In this document: positions 49,114 to 57,219 of the stretch, one piece after another
Layout of the letters: each line of letters begins with the position of its first letter
How positions within the stretch are numbered: the stretch's first letter is position 1
From: Alphaproteobacteria bacterium
GTDB lineage: Bacteria; Pseudomonadota; Alphaproteobacteria; Micavibrionales; UBA2020
Direction of reading: 5' to 3'
Assembly: GCA_025934695.1 (NCBI GenBank)
Contig: JAICWS010000002.1
Coordinates: 1,097,043 to 1,161,042 of the forward strand
Length of the DNA stretch: 64,000 nt
Position numbers and translations under genes: made by a program
Notes under the pieces: generated by a model
Database searches by the model: none
What the model was told of the DNA's origin: nothing
What the model saw: the letters and a program-made list of their open reading frames with translations, nothing else

Positions 49114-49674
49114 ATGTGGCCAAAAATTTTCAATCGACAATCCGCGCCAGTATCCGAAGCAGAAAAATTTCTGACCGAAAGACGCTATGGCTTCGAGAAG
49201 CAGCTGGACGGTTCGCTGTTGTTGGACTCGTGGGATTTCAGCTTGAGCGGGAAGGGGCTCACGAAGCTCCCTAATCTGACCAATGTCGTGGTGAGAAATC
49301 ATTTCAACTGCGGCGACAATGAACTCACATCGCTGGAAGGCGCGCCCACGGTCGGCGGTATGTTCTTGTGCCACAATAACAAGCTCACCACGCTGAAAGG
49401 CGCGCCGCCTTCGGTCGGGGGCGAGTTCTATTGTTACAAAAATCCGCTGCTGAAAAGCCTCGAAGGAACTCCGATGCAGTTCCTCGAGCTGGTCAGCGAC
49501 CTCGGCACCTTTTCATCCTGGGACCAGGTGCCGGAGAAGCTGCGCCTCTCGCCGGAAACGCGGGAGCGGATGGCGCGCGAAAAAATCGAGGCCGAACGGC
49601 AGGCAATCGCGCAGCATGTCGTGTTGCAGAAAAAGCTACTCATTCGCCGGCCACTGAAACTCCACAGGCAGTAA
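49114..49674 (+). CDS. Leucine-rich-repeat-like protein
   Basis: A 186-residue soluble protein. Three short repeats are visible: NELTSLEGAPTVGGMFLCHN, NKLTTLKGAPPSVGGEFYCY and the start of a third, NPLLKSLEGTP. This L-x-x-L-x-G-A-P-x-x-V-G-G pattern is the leucine-rich-like repeat found mainly in phage and bacterial orphan proteins. After the repeats is a helical, Glu/Gln/Arg-rich C-terminal part. The start at 49114 is set by GGAGGAG about 10 bases upstream. It may be a short, recently decayed member of a longer repeat family. Confidence 0.75.
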   Translation: MWPKIFNRQSAPVSEAEKFLTERRYGFEKQLDGSLLLDSWDFSLSGKGLTKLPNLTNVVVRNHFNCGDNELTSLEGAPTVGGMFLCHNNKLTTLKGAPPSVGGEFYCYKNPLLKSLEGTPMQFLELVSDLGTFSSWDQVPEKLRLSPETRERMAREKIEAERQAIAQHVVLQKKLLIRRPLKLHRQ

Positions 49675-49735
49675 AATCAAAGGGTTGGATATCTCGTTGA
49701 ATTTTTATGGGATATATAGTATCAAGTCCTTCACC

Positions 49736-50344
49736 ATGAAAGAAACGCCGCTCAACAAAGCCTTTGAAGACGCCCTGCGCACATTCGCGCAGGATCCCGC
49801 GCAGCAGTTCGCGGCGAAGCAGCTCGAGGTTTTTCAGCAGACGGCCGTCGATTTCCAGGATGCGGGCATCGTCGTGACGCTCGCCGTGCGTCCGGGCGGG
49901 GAAGGAACCCAGCTTGGTGAAAAGAGGGACGTCGACGGCGAAATCGTCGCGAACGGCGAAATGGAAATGGGCAAGGTGAAGCTCGACTTCGTCATCCACA
50001 AGGAACGCTATTACGACGACCGCATGTCCGTGCGCGTCTACCGGGACGAGGACGAGGTTTTCGCGCGCACTTCCGCCTACGACGAAGACAGTAAAATCTG
50101 GACCGAAGAAGAAACCGGCGACGACGATGACGGGTACGACGATGAAGACGATGAAAGCGCCAAAAAGGAAAAGCTGCCGCAGGATATGAAGTCGGTGATC
50201 AGCCGCTATCTCATCGACGTACGTACGCGCGAAGAATTCGTCGCGCGCTATAATGTCGGTCCCAACGGTGTTCCCGGCAACGCCGTCGAAAAGCCGTTTC
50301 CCGTCGCGGCGCCGCTCAAGCTCAAGAAACCGGGCGCACCATGA
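49736..50344 (+). CDS. Acidic protein of unknown function, first of two tandem paralogues
   Basis: A 202-residue protein starting MKETPLNKAFEDALRTFAQD. It has no signal peptide or membrane segment; residues ~125-145 are a highly acidic run (ETGDDDDGYDDEDDES). It resembles the next gene in its N-terminus, in the VTLAVRPG/LTLEVRPG strand and in a shared C-terminal tail: EKPFPVAAPLKLKKPGAP here, GKSFSVSPPLKLKGAPKP there. The two overlap by ATGA. No ribosome-binding site is obvious, so the true start could be slightly different. The family is not recognised. Confidence 0.68.
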   Translation: MKETPLNKAFEDALRTFAQDPAQQFAAKQLEVFQQTAVDFQDAGIVVTLAVRPGGEGTQLGEKRDVDGEIVANGEMEMGKVKLDFVIHKERYYDDRMSVRVYRDEDEVFARTSAYDEDSKIWTEEETGDDDDGYDDEDDESAKKEKLPQDMKSVISRYLIDVRTREEFVARYNVGPNGVPGNAVEKPFPVAAPLKLKKPGAP

Positions 50345-50859
50345 AGGAGCCGCAGCTGACCGGAAAATTCGAGCAGGCCGTCGCCGACATGCGCGACAAT
50401 GCGGACATGAAGGCGCTCCTCCACCATCTGGGCCAGATCCGCGAAGCGGTGACGGAGCTTCAAGCGGACGGGCTGCCGTTGACGCTGGAGGTGCGTCCCG
50501 GCGCGTATAAATGCGCGATCGATTACGATAACAGGGCGAAGGTCATGGCCAACGGCGCGATCCTGATCGGCGGCACCGCGCTCGGTTTTGGTTTCACCCG
50601 CAACGGCGGGTCGATGAGTTTCACGATCAATCTTGGCTCATGCGAGATCGACTCCGCCTATCTCTCCGGCGAAGGCTTTCCCGAGCGGGAGAACGGCCGC
50701 CTGAAGAGGGTGGTCACCGACGCCGTGCTGAAGGTCGGCGCGCAGCTCCATCTGCTCGATGAATTCAATATCGACGAGGCCGGGCGGCACGGCATTTCGA
50801 CAGGCAAAAGTTTTTCGGTTTCGCCGCCATTGAAGCTCAAGGGCGCTCCGAAGCCTTAG
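50341..50859 (+). CDS. Protein of unknown function, second of two tandem paralogues
   Basis: A 172-residue protein starting MKEPQLTGKFEQAVADMRDN. It overlaps its paralogue by ATGA, so the pair is translated in step and probably forms a complex or acts on the same partner. Compared with the first copy it lacks the acidic insert and is rich in glycine in the middle (GGTALGFGFTRNGGSMSFTI). The shared KxFxVxxPLKLK tail is positively charged and may be a binding or export determinant. No known domain is seen. Confidence 0.68.
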   Translation: MKEPQLTGKFEQAVADMRDNADMKALLHHLGQIREAVTELQADGLPLTLEVRPGAYKCAIDYDNRAKVMANGAILIGGTALGFGFTRNGGSMSFTINLGSCEIDSAYLSGEGFPERENGRLKRVVTDAVLKVGAQLHLLDEFNIDEAGRHGISTGKSFSVSPPLKLKGAPKP

Positions 50860-51009: not shown

Positions 51010-52365
51010 GTGCAGCACGATCCGGCGGTATTGCAGGAAATCCAGGAGGAGCTTGAGCGCGACAAGCGGGCTTATGAAGCCCTGCCGCCGCGCCAGCAGC
51101 GCCTCGTGCAGCGCATCGCAAAATATGAATCCGGCATGCGCGACATCCTGGTCGAAGGGGGCAAGGCCGTTATCGGCGTGCTCGAACTCGCGGCTAATGT
51201 AATCCTGCGTCTTCCCTATGTGCTGGCCGGACGGCTGATCGCGGGCATCGCGAACCGCGCCGTCGACGTGGTGAAGCTGGGCGTTGGCATCGTCTCCGGC
51301 GCGGGCCGGGTGCTGCTGGCAACGGGACGCGGCGGCCTCGCGCTCGCGTCGCGCGGCATCGACCTGCTCCAGAAAAAAGGCTGGCTGTCGCAAAGCGGCG
51401 GCGCGAAAGGCGAGGAGCGCCTGAAAGCCTGGGGCGAAAAGCTCAACGACTGGCGCGACAACGTCATCGCCTGGCGCAAGAATGTCAGCGAGAGCATCGA
51501 CAAGGGCTGGGCCTGGGCGAAGGCCGGGATGACGAAAGGCGTCGTCGTTGCCGCCGAAGCGCTCGAATATTACGGCGCCATCGGCCTGTATCGCGGCACG
51601 AAATGGGTGCTCAACCCGCGCCGCCCGTCGGGAAAGCCGCTGTTCGGGTCGGAAATGGCGAACCGCGTCGTCGGTCTCGGGATGGCGGCCGTACTTTTCA
51701 CCGGACTGTCGTTCGAGCTCTCGAAGCTTTTTATCCTGGGGAAGATCTGGCACATCAAGCTCGCCCATTCCTTCGTCCATGACGTCGGCATCCCTATGTC
51801 GCGCCGCGTGGCCAAGCAGGTGGCGCTGCAGCCGCTTCTCGCGCTGGGCCTCGCCTCCGCGAAATTCGTGAGCCTGCCGATCATCGCGGCCGCGCGCGGC
51901 GCGCTGAAATCGACGCCATTCACACAAGGGCTTGCTTATCAATATAACGTCCAGCTGGGCGAACGCCTCGCACGCCGCGCCGCCCGGAAAGCGGAACGCG
52001 ACGCCAAGCCGCAGACGGGGATGAAGGGTCTGGCGCGCAAGGCGGGGCACGGAACCCTGGTCGTCTCGCGCTATCTGCACAAGAAGACGCTGAATTTCGT
52101 CAGCCTCTTCGTTGAACATATCGTCGAAAAGGCTTCGCCGGAGTTTTATGAAGGCCGCTTGAAACACTACCAGTCGCGCGCCGCGGCAAAATCCGTCGAA
52201 GCGCCGGTGCCTGCCGCAGTTCACGCCGCGCCGGAAGCATCGGCTGCGGTTACGAAGCTGCCCGGCCTTACGCCTTCCTTCGAAAATGCGGTCAACGACA
52301 ATCCCAAACCCGACGCCGCCGCGCCGCAGCCCGCCAAAAAGCCCGACCAGAATTTCGGAATGTAA
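51010..52365 (+). CDS. Large helical protein of unknown function
   Basis: A 451-residue basic protein starting at GTG with AGGGGA 9 bases upstream. Residues about 60-125 carry long amphipathic helices (VLELAANVILRLPYVLAGRL, AVDVVKLGVGIVSGAGRVLL), and residues about 205-235 a hydrophobic helix (VVGLGMAAVLFTGLSFELSK), so it is probably membrane-associated. The C-terminus is an Ala/Pro-rich flexible tail (VNDNPKPDAAAPQPAKKPDQ). No family is recognised. Strong promoter with an operator implies regulated, high-level expression. It ends 3 bases from the convergent glutaryl-CoA dehydrogenase gene. Confidence 0.7.
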   Translation: MQHDPAVLQEIQEELERDKRAYEALPPRQQRLVQRIAKYESGMRDILVEGGKAVIGVLELAANVILRLPYVLAGRLIAGIANRAVDVVKLGVGIVSGAGRVLLATGRGGLALASRGIDLLQKKGWLSQSGGAKGEERLKAWGEKLNDWRDNVIAWRKNVSESIDKGWAWAKAGMTKGVVVAAEALEYYGAIGLYRGTKWVLNPRRPSGKPLFGSEMANRVVGLGMAAVLFTGLSFELSKLFILGKIWHIKLAHSFVHDVGIPMSRRVAKQVALQPLLALGLASAKFVSLPIIAAARGALKSTPFTQGLAYQYNVQLGERLARRAARKAERDAKPQTGMKGLARKAGHGTLVVSRYLHKKTLNFVSLFVEHIVEKASPEFYEGRLKHYQSRAAAKSVEAPVPAAVHAAPEASAAVTKLPGLTPSFENAVNDNPKPDAAAPQPAKKPDQNFGM

Positions 52366-54015: not shown

Positions 54016-54984
54016 ATGGACCGCCAGAAGAAGCTCGACGATAAATTGTTGCGCAGTGTCTACAGCAGTTACACGACCCTCCACGACGTCATCAAACTGA
54101 TCGATAGCGGAGCGGATCCGCTGGCCCGCGATTCAGAAGGCCTCACGCTCCTGCATCATCTGTTCATCACCCGCAGCGGCATGGATTCCCTCGCGAACGA
54201 AGTCCTGCCGCTGTGCATTGAGCGCGGCCTCGACATCAATGCGCGCGACAATGACGGATTGACGCCATTGCATTATGCGGCAAAACATTTTCACGCCAGG
54301 AACGGTCAAGGCCTGCGCCTGCTGGTGGAGCTCTATGGAGCCGACAGCAACGCGCGCTCCAACAACGGCACGACGCCGCTGCACAGCGCTGCCGGCGGAT
54401 ATGGCGCGGTGAAGGAACTGCTGCAGCTGGGCGCCGACCCGATGGCGCTGGACGGCAAGGGCGGCATGACGCCGCTGCACTATGCGGCCCTCCGCGGACT
54501 ATCCGACGCGGCGGATGAGCTTCTGACCAAAGGCGCGGACCCCGCGGCCCGTAGCGCCAGCGGACAGACGCCCGCGGATTTCGCGGCGAAGAACCATTAT
54601 TTTTCGCTGGCGGCATCACTGCGCAAGAAGGCGCAGGATGCGGAAGATACACGATGGAAGCCGCAGCGACCGGAAGGACCGCAGGATCCCTGGAAGCTGA
54701 TCGACAAAACTTCCATCTCCCGCATGCATGATTGTTCGCCGGCGGGCTACCGCGTCACGGAAATCTTCAATTTCTCCTCGCGGCTTTACACGCACATCGC
54801 CACGAACCTTGAGACGAAGGCCGAGGCGCTGACCGTGAGGACCTTCGATGAATTCGCGGACAAGCGCCCGCTGAAGGAGGCGCTCGCCCAAATCGATCGC
54901 CTGCACGGCGAGGCCGATCCTGAAGCCATTTATCCGCCGCGCATGGACAAGCAGCCGCGGCTGCAGCCCCGGCCACAGGAGTAG
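54016..54984 (+). CDS. Ankyrin-repeat protein with a conserved C-terminal domain, tandem copy 1
   Basis: A 322-residue soluble protein. Ankyrin repeats occupy about 18-200: DSEGLTLLHHLF, DNDGLTPLHYAAKHF, NNGTTPLHSAAGGYGAVKEL, GGMTPLHYAALRGLSDAADE and ASGQTPADFAAKN. Residues about 223-299 are a separate domain: QDPWKLIDKTSIS, GYRVTEIFNFSSRLYTHIAT, TKAEALTVRTFDEFADKRPL. The next gene has the same domain. I know no name for it. The pair is 4 bases apart and the second has its own AGGAG, so they form an operon. Function by inference: the ankyrin part binds a partner and the C-terminal domain acts on it or on the envelope. Confidence 0.85.
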   Translation: MDRQKKLDDKLLRSVYSSYTTLHDVIKLIDSGADPLARDSEGLTLLHHLFITRSGMDSLANEVLPLCIERGLDINARDNDGLTPLHYAAKHFHARNGQGLRLLVELYGADSNARSNNGTTPLHSAAGGYGAVKELLQLGADPMALDGKGGMTPLHYAALRGLSDAADELLTKGADPAARSASGQTPADFAAKNHYFSLAASLRKKAQDAEDTRWKPQRPEGPQDPWKLIDKTSISRMHDCSPAGYRVTEIFNFSSRLYTHIATNLETKAEALTVRTFDEFADKRPLKEALAQIDRLHGEADPEAIYPPRMDKQPRLQPRPQE

Positions 54985-54988
54985 GCAT

Positions 54989-55981
54989 ATGGGACAGAAC
55001 AAGGATCTCGATAACCGGCTGATCCAACTCGCAGCCAACGGCAGCGTGGATACCGCGCGCCAGATCATCCGCGAAGGCGCCGATCCGCAGGCGCGCGACG
55101 CCACATCGGGTAAGACCGGTCTTCATTACGCCATCAACTATTCCGAATATAATTACACCGGCAAGGGCCGCGAGATGCTGTCGATCTTCCTCAACCGCGG
55201 GGTTGATATCAACGCGGGCGATGCCGCGGGCGCGACGGCGCTGCATTACGCGGCGCTGGACGAAGGCTATATCTGCCGCGCCAAGATCAACGACCTGCTC
55301 AATTTCGGCGCGAACATCGAGGCGCGCGACCGGGAAGGCCAGACGCCGCTGCATCACGCCGCGCGGATGGGCAAGAAGGCGGACGCCGTCAAGCTGCTGC
55401 TGGAGGCGGGCGCCGATGTCAACGCCCGCGATGAATCGGGCGCCACGCCCCTGCATATGGCGGCGGCCCGCGGCGAGGAAGAAGTCATCAAGATTTTGCT
55501 GAATGCGGGCGCTGACGTGAACGCGGAGACCCGCACCGGGCTGCACGTCTGGGATTTCGGCGTCGAGAACGGGCGCGATTACCAGGCCCAGTGCCTGAAG
55601 GCCGAAGCGGCCAAGCAGCTGCGTGCCGCGCGCAAGCAGCAGGAAGAAACCCGCCGCCGCCTGGAAGCCGAGAGGCCGCGCGATCCCTGGAAGCTGCTCG
55701 CGCCGGACAAGGTCGCTATTTCAACTGTCGAAAAGCAGATCGGCTACCAGGTCACGGAGGTTTTCAATTTCGCCGCGCGCACCTATACGCAGATCTCGCA
55801 GAACCTGTCCACCAAGTCAGAAGCCGTCGCAGTCAAAACCTTCGACGAGTTCGACGACAAGACTTCCCTTGAAAGGGCTTTCGGCGAACTGCAGCGCCTC
55901 GGCGGCCAGGCCGAGCGCGATTCCATCAAAGGCCCCGTCGTCGAAAAGCCGCGCAAGCAGCTCAACCTGCCAAAGGCCTAG
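54989..55981 (+). CDS. Ankyrin-repeat protein with a conserved C-terminal domain, tandem copy 2
   Basis: A 330-residue soluble protein. Repeats run from about 12 to 190: KTGLHYAINYSEYNYTGKGR, GATALHYAALDEGYICRAKI, EGQTPLHHAARMGKKADAVK, SGATPLHMAAARGEEEVIKI and a final RTGLHVWDFG. A charged helix (KQLRAARKQQEETRRRLEAE) leads into the same C-terminal domain as its neighbour, residues about 231-307: RDPWKLLAPDKVAIS, YQVTEVFNFAARTYTQI, TKSEAVAVKTFDEFDDKTSL. The matching residues are about half identical between the copies, indicating old duplication. A strong AGGAG precedes the ATG. Confidence 0.85.
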   Translation: MGQNKDLDNRLIQLAANGSVDTARQIIREGADPQARDATSGKTGLHYAINYSEYNYTGKGREMLSIFLNRGVDINAGDAAGATALHYAALDEGYICRAKINDLLNFGANIEARDREGQTPLHHAARMGKKADAVKLLLEAGADVNARDESGATPLHMAAARGEEEVIKILLNAGADVNAETRTGLHVWDFGVENGRDYQAQCLKAEAAKQLRAARKQQEETRRRLEAERPRDPWKLLAPDKVAISTVEKQIGYQVTEVFNFAARTYTQISQNLSTKSEAVAVKTFDEFDDKTSLERAFGELQRLGGQAERDSIKGPVVEKPRKQLNLPKA

Positions 55982-56091: not shown

Positions 56092-57219
56092 ATGGCATCC
56101 GATTATATCGACAATACCCACGCGATTCCCGCCATCGCCGATGGCATGATGAACAGCGATGGCCTCGCGCTGGTTCATTCCACGCGTTACAAGCCCGTTA
56201 TCAATGAAGACGGCAGCGTGACGTTGCCCTCGACCTATGTCGCCACCGAAGGGCGCGAGGCGCGCAACACGGTTCACTTCGCGCTTAATCACAAGGTCAG
56301 CAGCCATCTTCAGGGAGCCTGGGGTGACTCGGACTATGCCATCATCGCGCCGTTCTCGGCGGTGATGCGGCAAGAGGGGCCGCCGGCGATGCTGATGCCG
56401 TCGGATACCTTCTGGACGACGAACGCGACCGATCCTCTGACACTGCCGCAGGCGACGGTCGTCATGCCCGGTCCGGCAGACATGAAAGACCTGGTCACCT
56501 TCGACGGCAACATCGTGAGATACAAAACCGGCGGTTTCACCGACGTCGACGAGCATCTGATCGCGTACGAGTGCGGCGACCAGCAGCGGCTGGCGCGGGC
56601 ATCGGGGCCCGCGGAGCGTGAACGCATCCTGAGGGGATGTTCGATGGAACATGCGACGCACGCGGCGATCAATCATCTTGGCTTCGCCGTCGAGCAGGCG
56701 AACCAGTGGCACTGGCTTCGCCCGGATTACCATCATTCGATGGCCGACAGGCTGGCGGCGCAGATAGGCACCGGGAGTTCCATCCCGCACATGCGAACGC
56801 CTTATCACGGCCTCGAGAACCATATGGGAGAGCTGCTGACGCTGGCCGATTATTACGAGGCGAAAGCGGGTCTCAGTGGCAACAGGGCGAAGGATGAAGA
56901 CGGGGATTCTTCCGTGTTCAGCAAAACGGGCGAGCGTATCGGAACTCTCAAGACAATCGTCGTGCAGGAGCTGGCGCGCGACGGTGCTTTGCAGGAAAGC
57001 CTCGGGCACCTGCGCGATTTTGCGGCGGAACTCGATCCCAGAACGCACGATGTTGCGCGCGATTTCAGCCAGAAAATACTCCAGCGCCTTCAGACCGCTC
57101 AGGCCGTGATAGCGGCCATGCCCAAGGTGGAGGCAGACGTCTCAGGCAATATCCCGGCGAAACGATTTTCGAATGAAGGGCCAGTCACCATCAGCATGCG
57201 CCGCGTGCTCGAACTTTAG
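56092..57219 (+). CDS. Protein of unknown function
   Basis: A 375-residue soluble protein with no signal peptide. The N-terminal ~170 residues look like a beta-rich domain: RNTVHFALNHKVSSHLQGAW, SDYAIIAPFSAVMRQEGPPA, TDPLTLPQATVVMPGP and FDGNIVRYKTGGFTDVDEHL. The remainder is helical, with a histidine-rich middle (MEHATHAAINHLGF, NQWHWLRPDYHHSMAD). I cannot assign a family. It lies 110 bases after the ankyrin pair on the same strand and overlaps the 3' end of the next, convergent gene by 4 bases. It could be an effector or an enzyme, but no catalytic motif is clear. Confidence 0.65.
   Translation: MASDYIDNTHAIPAIADGMMNSDGLALVHSTRYKPVINEDGSVTLPSTYVATEGREARNTVHFALNHKVSSHLQGAWGDSDYAIIAPFSAVMRQEGPPAMLMPSDTFWTTNATDPLTLPQATVVMPGPADMKDLVTFDGNIVRYKTGGFTDVDEHLIAYECGDQQRLARASGPAERERILRGCSMEHATHAAINHLGFAVEQANQWHWLRPDYHHSMADRLAAQIGTGSSIPHMRTPYHGLENHMGELLTLADYYEAKAGLSGNRAKDEDGDSSVFSKTGERIGTLKTIVVQELARDGALQESLGHLRDFAAELDPRTHDVARDFSQKILQRLQTAQAVIAAMPKVEADVSGNIPAKRFSNEGPVTISMRRVLEL

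What the first reader, a model, noticed from the sequence alone, without database searches (positions are those of the whole stretch)
54016..55981. Unnamed C-terminal domain shared by two tandem ankyrin proteins
Residues 223-299 of copy 1 and 231-307 of copy 2 share DPWKL, the VTE-FNF block, a Y-T-x-I stretch and TFDEF-DK, while the ankyrin parts differ. This defines a ~77-residue domain with no name I know. Ankyrin parts vary, the tail is kept: a typical sign of adaptors with different targets but the same activity.
Basis: seen in the sequence. Interest (0 to 1): 0.62.

Follow-up and report, generated by a model that had tools for sequence, protein, structure and literature searches.

The report
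Unnamed tail domain on ankyrin proteins
Two neighbouring ankyrin-repeat proteins share a real, previously unnamed C-terminal domain that occurs in dozens of copies per genome, fused to ankyrins or alone, but only within one bacterial order (the Micavibrio lineage), which makes it a lineage-specific protein-binding module of unknown partner.

Summary
The two genes (54016-54984, 54989-55981) encode ankyrin proteins with homologous C-terminal domains (48% identity over 97 residues). The domain has no Pfam or NCBIfam match, no sequence match in the PDB, and no clear fold match. It is not confined to this duplication. A profile finds 36 copies in this 4.1-Mb genome at E<=1e-3, and copies in 27 of 142 genomes of the order, but in none of the 288 and 397 other genomes sampled from the class and phylum. 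About two thirds of the copies here are ankyrin fusions. The rest are small stand-alone proteins, often in tandem arrays. AlphaFold gives five strands plus a helix (pLDDT 90), joined to the ankyrin stack by a 32-residue helix. Loci keep their chromosomal address between genera, and both halves are under purifying selection. This favours stable intracellular adaptors over immunity arrays or arms-race effectors. 'Ankyrin varies, tail is kept' is only weakly true (34% versus 32% mean identity). No VirB4 (T4SS) or TssC (T6SS) was found; type I secretion adaptors exist, so export is not excluded. In passing: a short C-terminal motif, V-x-[KR]-P-[LI]-x-[LF]-[KR], ends 17 of 27 sampled ankyrin proteins that lack this domain; tail-domain proteins end in a similar L-x-K-P motif.

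The parts
54016..54984 (+). Gene 1: ankyrin protein with tail domain (322 aa). No orthologue was found at this site in relatives; a divergent tandem copy
   Evidence: tree branch of 1.2 outside the gene-2 orthologue clade
54682..54912 (+). Tail domain of gene 1 (residues 223-299)
54989..55981 (+). Gene 2: ankyrin protein with tail domain (330 aa), starting 4 bases after the stop of gene 1. Relatives at the same chromosomal site in the three other genomes checked
54995..55567 (+). Ankyrin stack of gene 2 (residues 3-193)
   Evidence: Pfam Ank; full-length model, pLDDT 94
55577..55672 (+). Long helix joining ankyrin stack and tail (residues 197-228)
   Evidence: full-length model
55679..55909 (+). 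Tail domain of gene 2 (residues 231-307): five strands plus a helix; F29-N30-F31, F55, A67 and G75-G76 (domain numbering) nearly invariant
55940..55972 (+). Conserved C-terminal peptide VEKPRKQLNLP (residues 318-328), kept in orthologues as LEKPKRNLKLP and similar
   Evidence: ortholog alignment; family-wide end motif 40 of 97 against 7.0 in shuffles
49114..49674 (+). Nearby gene without the tail domain that ends in the short motif (RRPLKLHRQ); leucine-rich-repeat-like by eye only
   Evidence: relation to the tail domain is inference
49736..50344 (+). Nearby gene of unknown function ending in APLKLKKPGAP; its counterpart in a related genome (41% identical overall) keeps APPLKLKNAPKP
50341..50859 (+). 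Nearby gene of unknown function ending in PPLKLKGAPKP

Best explanation
These are intracellular adaptor (scaffold) proteins. The ankyrin stack of each paralogue holds its own fixed partner. A long helix acts as a spacer. The C-terminal beta5-alpha module, common to the whole family, docks on a shared partner or on another copy of itself; the small stand-alone copies would be free versions of that docking module. A flexible end with a basic/hydrophobic K-P motif may be a second docking peptide. Shown: the architecture, the homology of fused and stand-alone copies, the conservation, the stable chromosomal addresses and the purifying selection. Inferred: the intracellular location, the shared partner, and any function of the end motif.
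For: In the 131 ORFs first collected for the fused form, the domain follows ankyrin repeats in all but four, which are cut by the locus end, truncated or degenerate. Stand-alone domain proteins exist in tandem arrays and are homologous by profile (hhalign 97.9%, E = 4e-13). The domain folds independently with high confidence, and the full-length model shows ankyrin stack, 32-residue helix and tail. Near-invariant residues are hydrophobic or glycine plus one Asn, with no conserved Cys, His or acidic cluster, so a binding rather than catalytic domain is likely. Loci keep the same housekeeping neighbours across genera (acyl-CoA dehydrogenase/glyA/nrdR/nusB; ftsH/glmM, gene names by sequence recognition), and paralogues form clades by locus rather than by genome. 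dN/dS is 0.04-0.13 in both halves. No N-terminal signal peptide is apparent in the sequences (by eye).
Against: No partner, localisation or expression data. The ankyrin-versus-tail contrast in conservation is weak. The module could simply stabilise the ankyrin stack. Type I secretion adaptors are present, so export through a C-terminal signal is not excluded.
Confidence: 0.45

Rival explanations
1. Exported effectors: the conserved C-terminal region (domain plus end motif) is a translocation signal and the ankyrin stacks act on prey or host proteins, as for ankyrin effectors of Orientia and Legionella.
For: A shared C-terminus on paralogous ankyrin proteins without signal peptides resembles rickettsial Anks, which are reported as T1SS or T4SS substrates (PMC4148323). 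Type I HlyD-type adaptors are present in this genome, three over the curated cut-off. The end motif also marks ankyrin proteins that lack the domain.
Against: No VirB4-type T4SS ATPase in this genome and no TssC of T6SS in it or 15 relatives. HlyD adaptors occur in all 25 genomes examined, with or without the tail family. A compact five-strand domain is an unusual secretion signal, and purifying selection with fixed addresses is unlike fast-evolving effectors.
Confidence: 0.2
2. Structural cap: the domain mainly stabilises or solubilises the C-terminal end of an ankyrin array, and the expansion is ordinary tandem paralogy with no common partner.
For: The domain is almost always C-terminal to ankyrins. 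Loci grow and shrink by local tandem duplication.
Against: A 32-residue helix separates it from the ankyrin stack in the model, and stand-alone copies exist with no ankyrin to cap. Many ankyrin proteins in the same genome do without it (27 of 51 sampled).
Confidence: 0.2
3. Immunity or self-protection proteins against toxins or the cell's own prey-wall enzymes, as an ankyrin protein does in Bdellovibrio.
For: Arrays of paralogous small proteins recall immunity arrays, and the lineage is related to bacterial predators. The Bdellovibrio ankyrin is a precedent (PMC4686830, title and abstract).
Against: Neighbours are housekeeping genes, not toxins or peptidoglycan endopeptidases, and are conserved across genera. 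Orthologues are under purifying selection. No export signal is seen.
Confidence: 0.07

Closest known systems
Ank-PRANC (F-box-like) proteins of poxviruses and Orientia tsutsugamushi
   Same: N-terminal ankyrin repeats with one C-terminal module shared by a paralogous family; divergent overall sequence (13-43% identity among seven Orientia members, PMC4148323).
   Different: No Pfam match to PRANC or F-box. The module here is five beta strands plus one helix. It also occurs alone. Orientia ank genes are flanked by mobile elements (PMC4148323), whereas these sit beside housekeeping genes.
Legionella AnkB (ankyrin + F-box + C-terminal CaaX anchor)
   Same: Ankyrin protein with an added module and a short functional C-terminal motif (PMC5506055, abstract).
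   Different: No CaaX-type Cys at the C-terminus, no F-box match, and no VirB4 in this genome.
Bdellovibrio self-protection ankyrin protein
   Same: Ankyrin protein of a bacterial predator (PMC4686830).
   Different: Here no adjacent endopeptidase genes, no export signal, and a C-terminal domain in many copies.
Polo-box domains (fold resemblance only)
   Same: Antiparallel sheet followed by a helix; VIA-align Z 5.6-6.0 over 65-72 residues for several polo boxes.
   Different: Z is below 8, within what unrelated folds reach by the tool's own note; rmsd 2.7-3.1, identity 4-12%. No claim of relationship.

Membership tests
Ankyrin repeat proteins (Pfam Ank clan) | Matches to Ank profiles above the gathering score | tested here: met
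   PF12796 E = 1.4e-40 and PF00023 E = 3e-34
PRANC / F-box ankyrin family | C-terminal PRANC or F-box profile match | tested here: not met
   No such match at E up to 10 for the two proteins and their tails, nor for 93 tails at E up to 1
PRANC / F-box ankyrin family | Short helical F-box-like C-terminus | tested here: not met
   Model is five strands plus one helix, pLDDT 90. That F-boxes are helical is general knowledge, not tested here
T4SS-secreted ankyrin effectors | VirB4-type ATPase in the genome | tested here: not met
   0 matches to PF03135 in G000, 99% complete. Dot/Icm-type homologues may escape this profile
T1SS-secreted ankyrin effectors | HlyD-type adaptor in the genome | tested here: met
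   TIGR01843, three places over cut-off in G000, but also in all 25 genomes searched
T1SS-secreted ankyrin effectors | Secretion of the protein | not testable with these tools
   needs an assay
Bdellovibrio-type self-protection ankyrins | Gene adjacent to cognate peptidoglycan endopeptidases | tested here: not met
   Window neighbours are an acyl-CoA dehydrogenase, an ORFan and rpiB/glyA (names by sequence recognition). That adjacency defines the Bdellovibrio case is from general knowledge
Polo-box fold | Structural similarity clearly above background | tested here: inconclusive
   Z 5.6-6.0; Foldseek shows no match at E <= 0.001
Known domain in Pfam / NCBIfam / PDB | Significant sequence match | tested here: not met

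The most novel reading that the evidence does not exclude
In this lineage, ankyrin and other small proteins are sorted or assembled through a common C-terminal code: either the beta5-alpha tail domain with an L-x-K-P end, or a short V-x-[KR]-P-[LI]-x-[LF]-[KR] tag. A dedicated receptor or machine recognises it, giving a large private interaction network of tens to possibly hundreds of proteins.
Probability: 0.2. Interest if true: 0.78.

Novelty: new variant of a known kind. Interest (0 to 1): 0.5.

Why it matters
It defines a domain family with no entry in the libraries searched, copied up to about 36 times per genome in one bacterial order, with clear boundaries and a confident model, so it can be named and added to domain libraries. 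The fused and stand-alone forms, and the short C-terminal motif shared with other ankyrin proteins of the same genome, give a concrete test of how bacteria with many ankyrin proteins organise or deliver them.

Tried and rejected
Pfam, NCBIfam and PADLOC scans: only ankyrin matches (PADLOC PDC-M72A and others hit the ankyrin part only). PDB by sequence: best E 0.056 to dynein intermediate chains, not significant. Foldseek against PDB and viral models: nothing at E <= 0.001. VIA-align: best Z 6.4, below the level that means much, so the polo-box resemblance is not claimed. Phages: no match. IMG/VR: 41 pattern matches, none encoding a relative. Plasmids: the best places match only the ankyrin part. 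VirB4 T4SS and TssC T6SS were searched to explain a C-terminal signal and not found. Promoter and terminator scan around the two genes: none found. Literature searches for this domain or for Micavibrionales ankyrins found nothing describing it. The PSSM for the C-terminal motif hardly detects tail-domain proteins themselves (3 of 44), so identity of the two end motifs is not claimed.

Full report
Observation. The window holds two adjacent ORFs on the + strand, 54016-54984 (322 aa) and 54989-55981 (330 aa), separated by 4 bases. Both carry ankyrin repeats well above Pfam cut-offs. The tails have no Pfam match at E up to 10.

A family, not a single duplication. A search of the window's own genome with one tail finds 25 places at E <= 10, 18 of them at E <= 3e-6. 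A profile of 93 tails (A3) finds 43 places at E <= 1 and 36 at E <= 1e-3. Across the order 27 of 142 genomes have it: 17 of 18 in the window's own family f1 (2 to 36 copies each), seven genomes of family f5, and three of family f3 with weak matches. An evenly drawn sample of 289 genomes of the class and 398 of the phylum gave only the window's own genome; the stand-alone form gave the same result in the class sample. Named relatives found by a conserved peptide are all MAGs labelled Alphaproteobacteria, Rhodospirillaceae or Micavibrio sp.. Phyla other than the window's own were covered only by that peptide scan, which finds close relatives only.

Architecture. Of 131 ORFs with the domain in the first collected loci (some loci overlap, so some ORFs count twice), 127 have detectable ankyrin repeats; the other four are cut by the locus end, truncated or degenerate. 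Weaker profile matches led to stand-alone proteins of about 90-150 aa, such as six in a row at G000:C5 (L110:7265-9076) and three at L109:7613-8718. Their alignment A5 is homologous to A3 by profile comparison: probability 97.9%, E = 4e-13 over 78 columns. In the order the A5 profile matches 25 of 135 genomes, almost the same ones, though its weaker matches include the ankyrin-fused form. No fusion to any repeat other than ankyrin was seen.

Structure. AlphaFold gives five antiparallel strands followed by one helix (pLDDT 89.9, pTM 0.75; antiparallel is my reading of the strand order). The full-length protein is ankyrin stack, a 32-residue helix (197-228), the same domain, then a flexible end (pLDDT 94.3). 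The strongest conservation is F29, N30, F31, F55, A67, G75-G76 and W4. There is no conserved catalytic-looking cluster, so a binding role is inferred. No fold match is convincing.

Evolution. The loci are stable. The gene-2 orthologue or a close relative sits next to the same genes in three other genomes checked (L090, L091, L092), and two other clusters keep their neighbours too. In a tree of 50 full-length proteins, members group by locus, with most such clades well supported. Gene 2 and its orthologues form such a clade; gene 1 is a long branch (1.2) with no orthologue found. Pairwise dN/dS is 0.054-0.131 for the ankyrin part and 0.043-0.089 for the tail. Among paralogues of the own genome mean identity is 32.2% (ankyrin) and 34.4% (tail); ankyrin parts of the family against other ankyrin proteins give 29.7%.

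The C-terminal end. After the domain the orthologues keep a peptide such as VEKPRKQLNLP / LEKPKRNLKLP / LEKPRRGIKPP. In 97 different tail ends the pattern [LIVFMA]xK[KP]x(1-3)[LIFMP] occurs 40 times against 7.0 (sd 2.5) in shuffled ends; the pattern was chosen after looking at the ends, and the sequences are related, so this is descriptive. Separately, many proteins of this genome without the tail domain end in V-x-[KR]-P-[LI]-x-[LF]-[KR]. A score matrix trained on one set of sampled regions and tested on another finds it in 15 of 347 C-termini, 0 of 347 N-termini and 4 of 2983 internal windows; a control genome of the same order without the family gives 1 of 356. The matrix trained on all sampled regions of this genome, applied to another genome of the genus (G001), finds 9 of 162 C-termini against 4 of 1344 internal windows; samples of G002 and G003 gave 1 each. 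In the window's genome 17 of 27 sampled ankyrin proteins without the tail carry it, against 30 of 651 non-ankyrin proteins (Fisher p = 5e-15; the training set included these proteins and paralogues are not independent, so this p is optimistic). Pfam finds ankyrins in 17 of 44 carriers and little else.

Secretion. VirB4 (PF03135) is absent from this genome and nearly all relatives, TssC (PF05943) from all 16 examined. HlyD-type adaptors (TIGR01843) are present in all 25 examined. A C-terminal export signal through type I secretion is therefore possible but unsupported.

Explanation. The best reading is a family of stable intracellular adaptors: a private ankyrin partner for each paralogue, and a common C-terminal docking module that also exists alone. 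The architecture, homology, conservation and synteny are shown; the location, common partner and role of the end motif are inferred. Rivals, in order: exported effectors, a structural cap, self-protection proteins.

Comparison with the known. The layout works like the Ank-PRANC proteins of poxviruses and Orientia, in which a common C-terminal module recruits one machine and ankyrins are thought to choose the target (PMC4148323). It is not a member: no profile match and a different predicted fold. I file it as a new domain in a known kind of architecture.

Noticed in passing
window 49114-50859; L116:6794-7297; L122:3081-3635; L135:910-3304; L136:15366-17369; L141:14109-14839; L142:12009-14713; L226, L227, L231 in a related genome: Short C-terminal motif V-x-[KR]-P-[LI]-x-[LF]-[KR] on about 5-8% of sampled proteins of this genome, many of them ankyrin proteins without the tail domain, often with a second FNL/FEL end. 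Rare at internal positions, at N-termini and in a control genome.
   Followed up: partly
window 49736-50344 and 50341-50859: Tandem pair of proteins of unknown function (no significant Pfam match) ending in PLKLK. A counterpart in L090:2980-3648 is 41% identical overall but keeps the end almost unchanged.
   Followed up: partly
window 51010-52365: 451-aa protein with long hydrophobic stretches and no Pfam match, absent from the syntenic loci L090-L092 examined.
   Followed up: no
window 56092-57219: 375-aa protein without a significant match in Pfam, NCBIfam or PADLOC, between the ankyrin pair and rpiB. It is absent from that place in the related genomes examined.
   Followed up: no
L110:7265-9076 (G000:C5:315264-317075): Array of six stand-alone tail-domain proteins of 91-104 aa, all ending in KKLNL, RKLNL or RKFNL.
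   Followed up: partly
L116:7357-8871 (G000:C6), with similar-length copies in G001-G006, G009 and G011: Ankyrin protein of about 500 aa with a divergent tail domain, found in most f1 genomes near a murA-like gene; a candidate for the ancestral or most conserved member.
   Followed up: no
Micavibrio sp. UBA2020 (taxid 1946912): NCBI taxonomy places this relative in Bdellovibrionota, although related MAGs are labelled Alphaproteobacteria.
   Followed up: no
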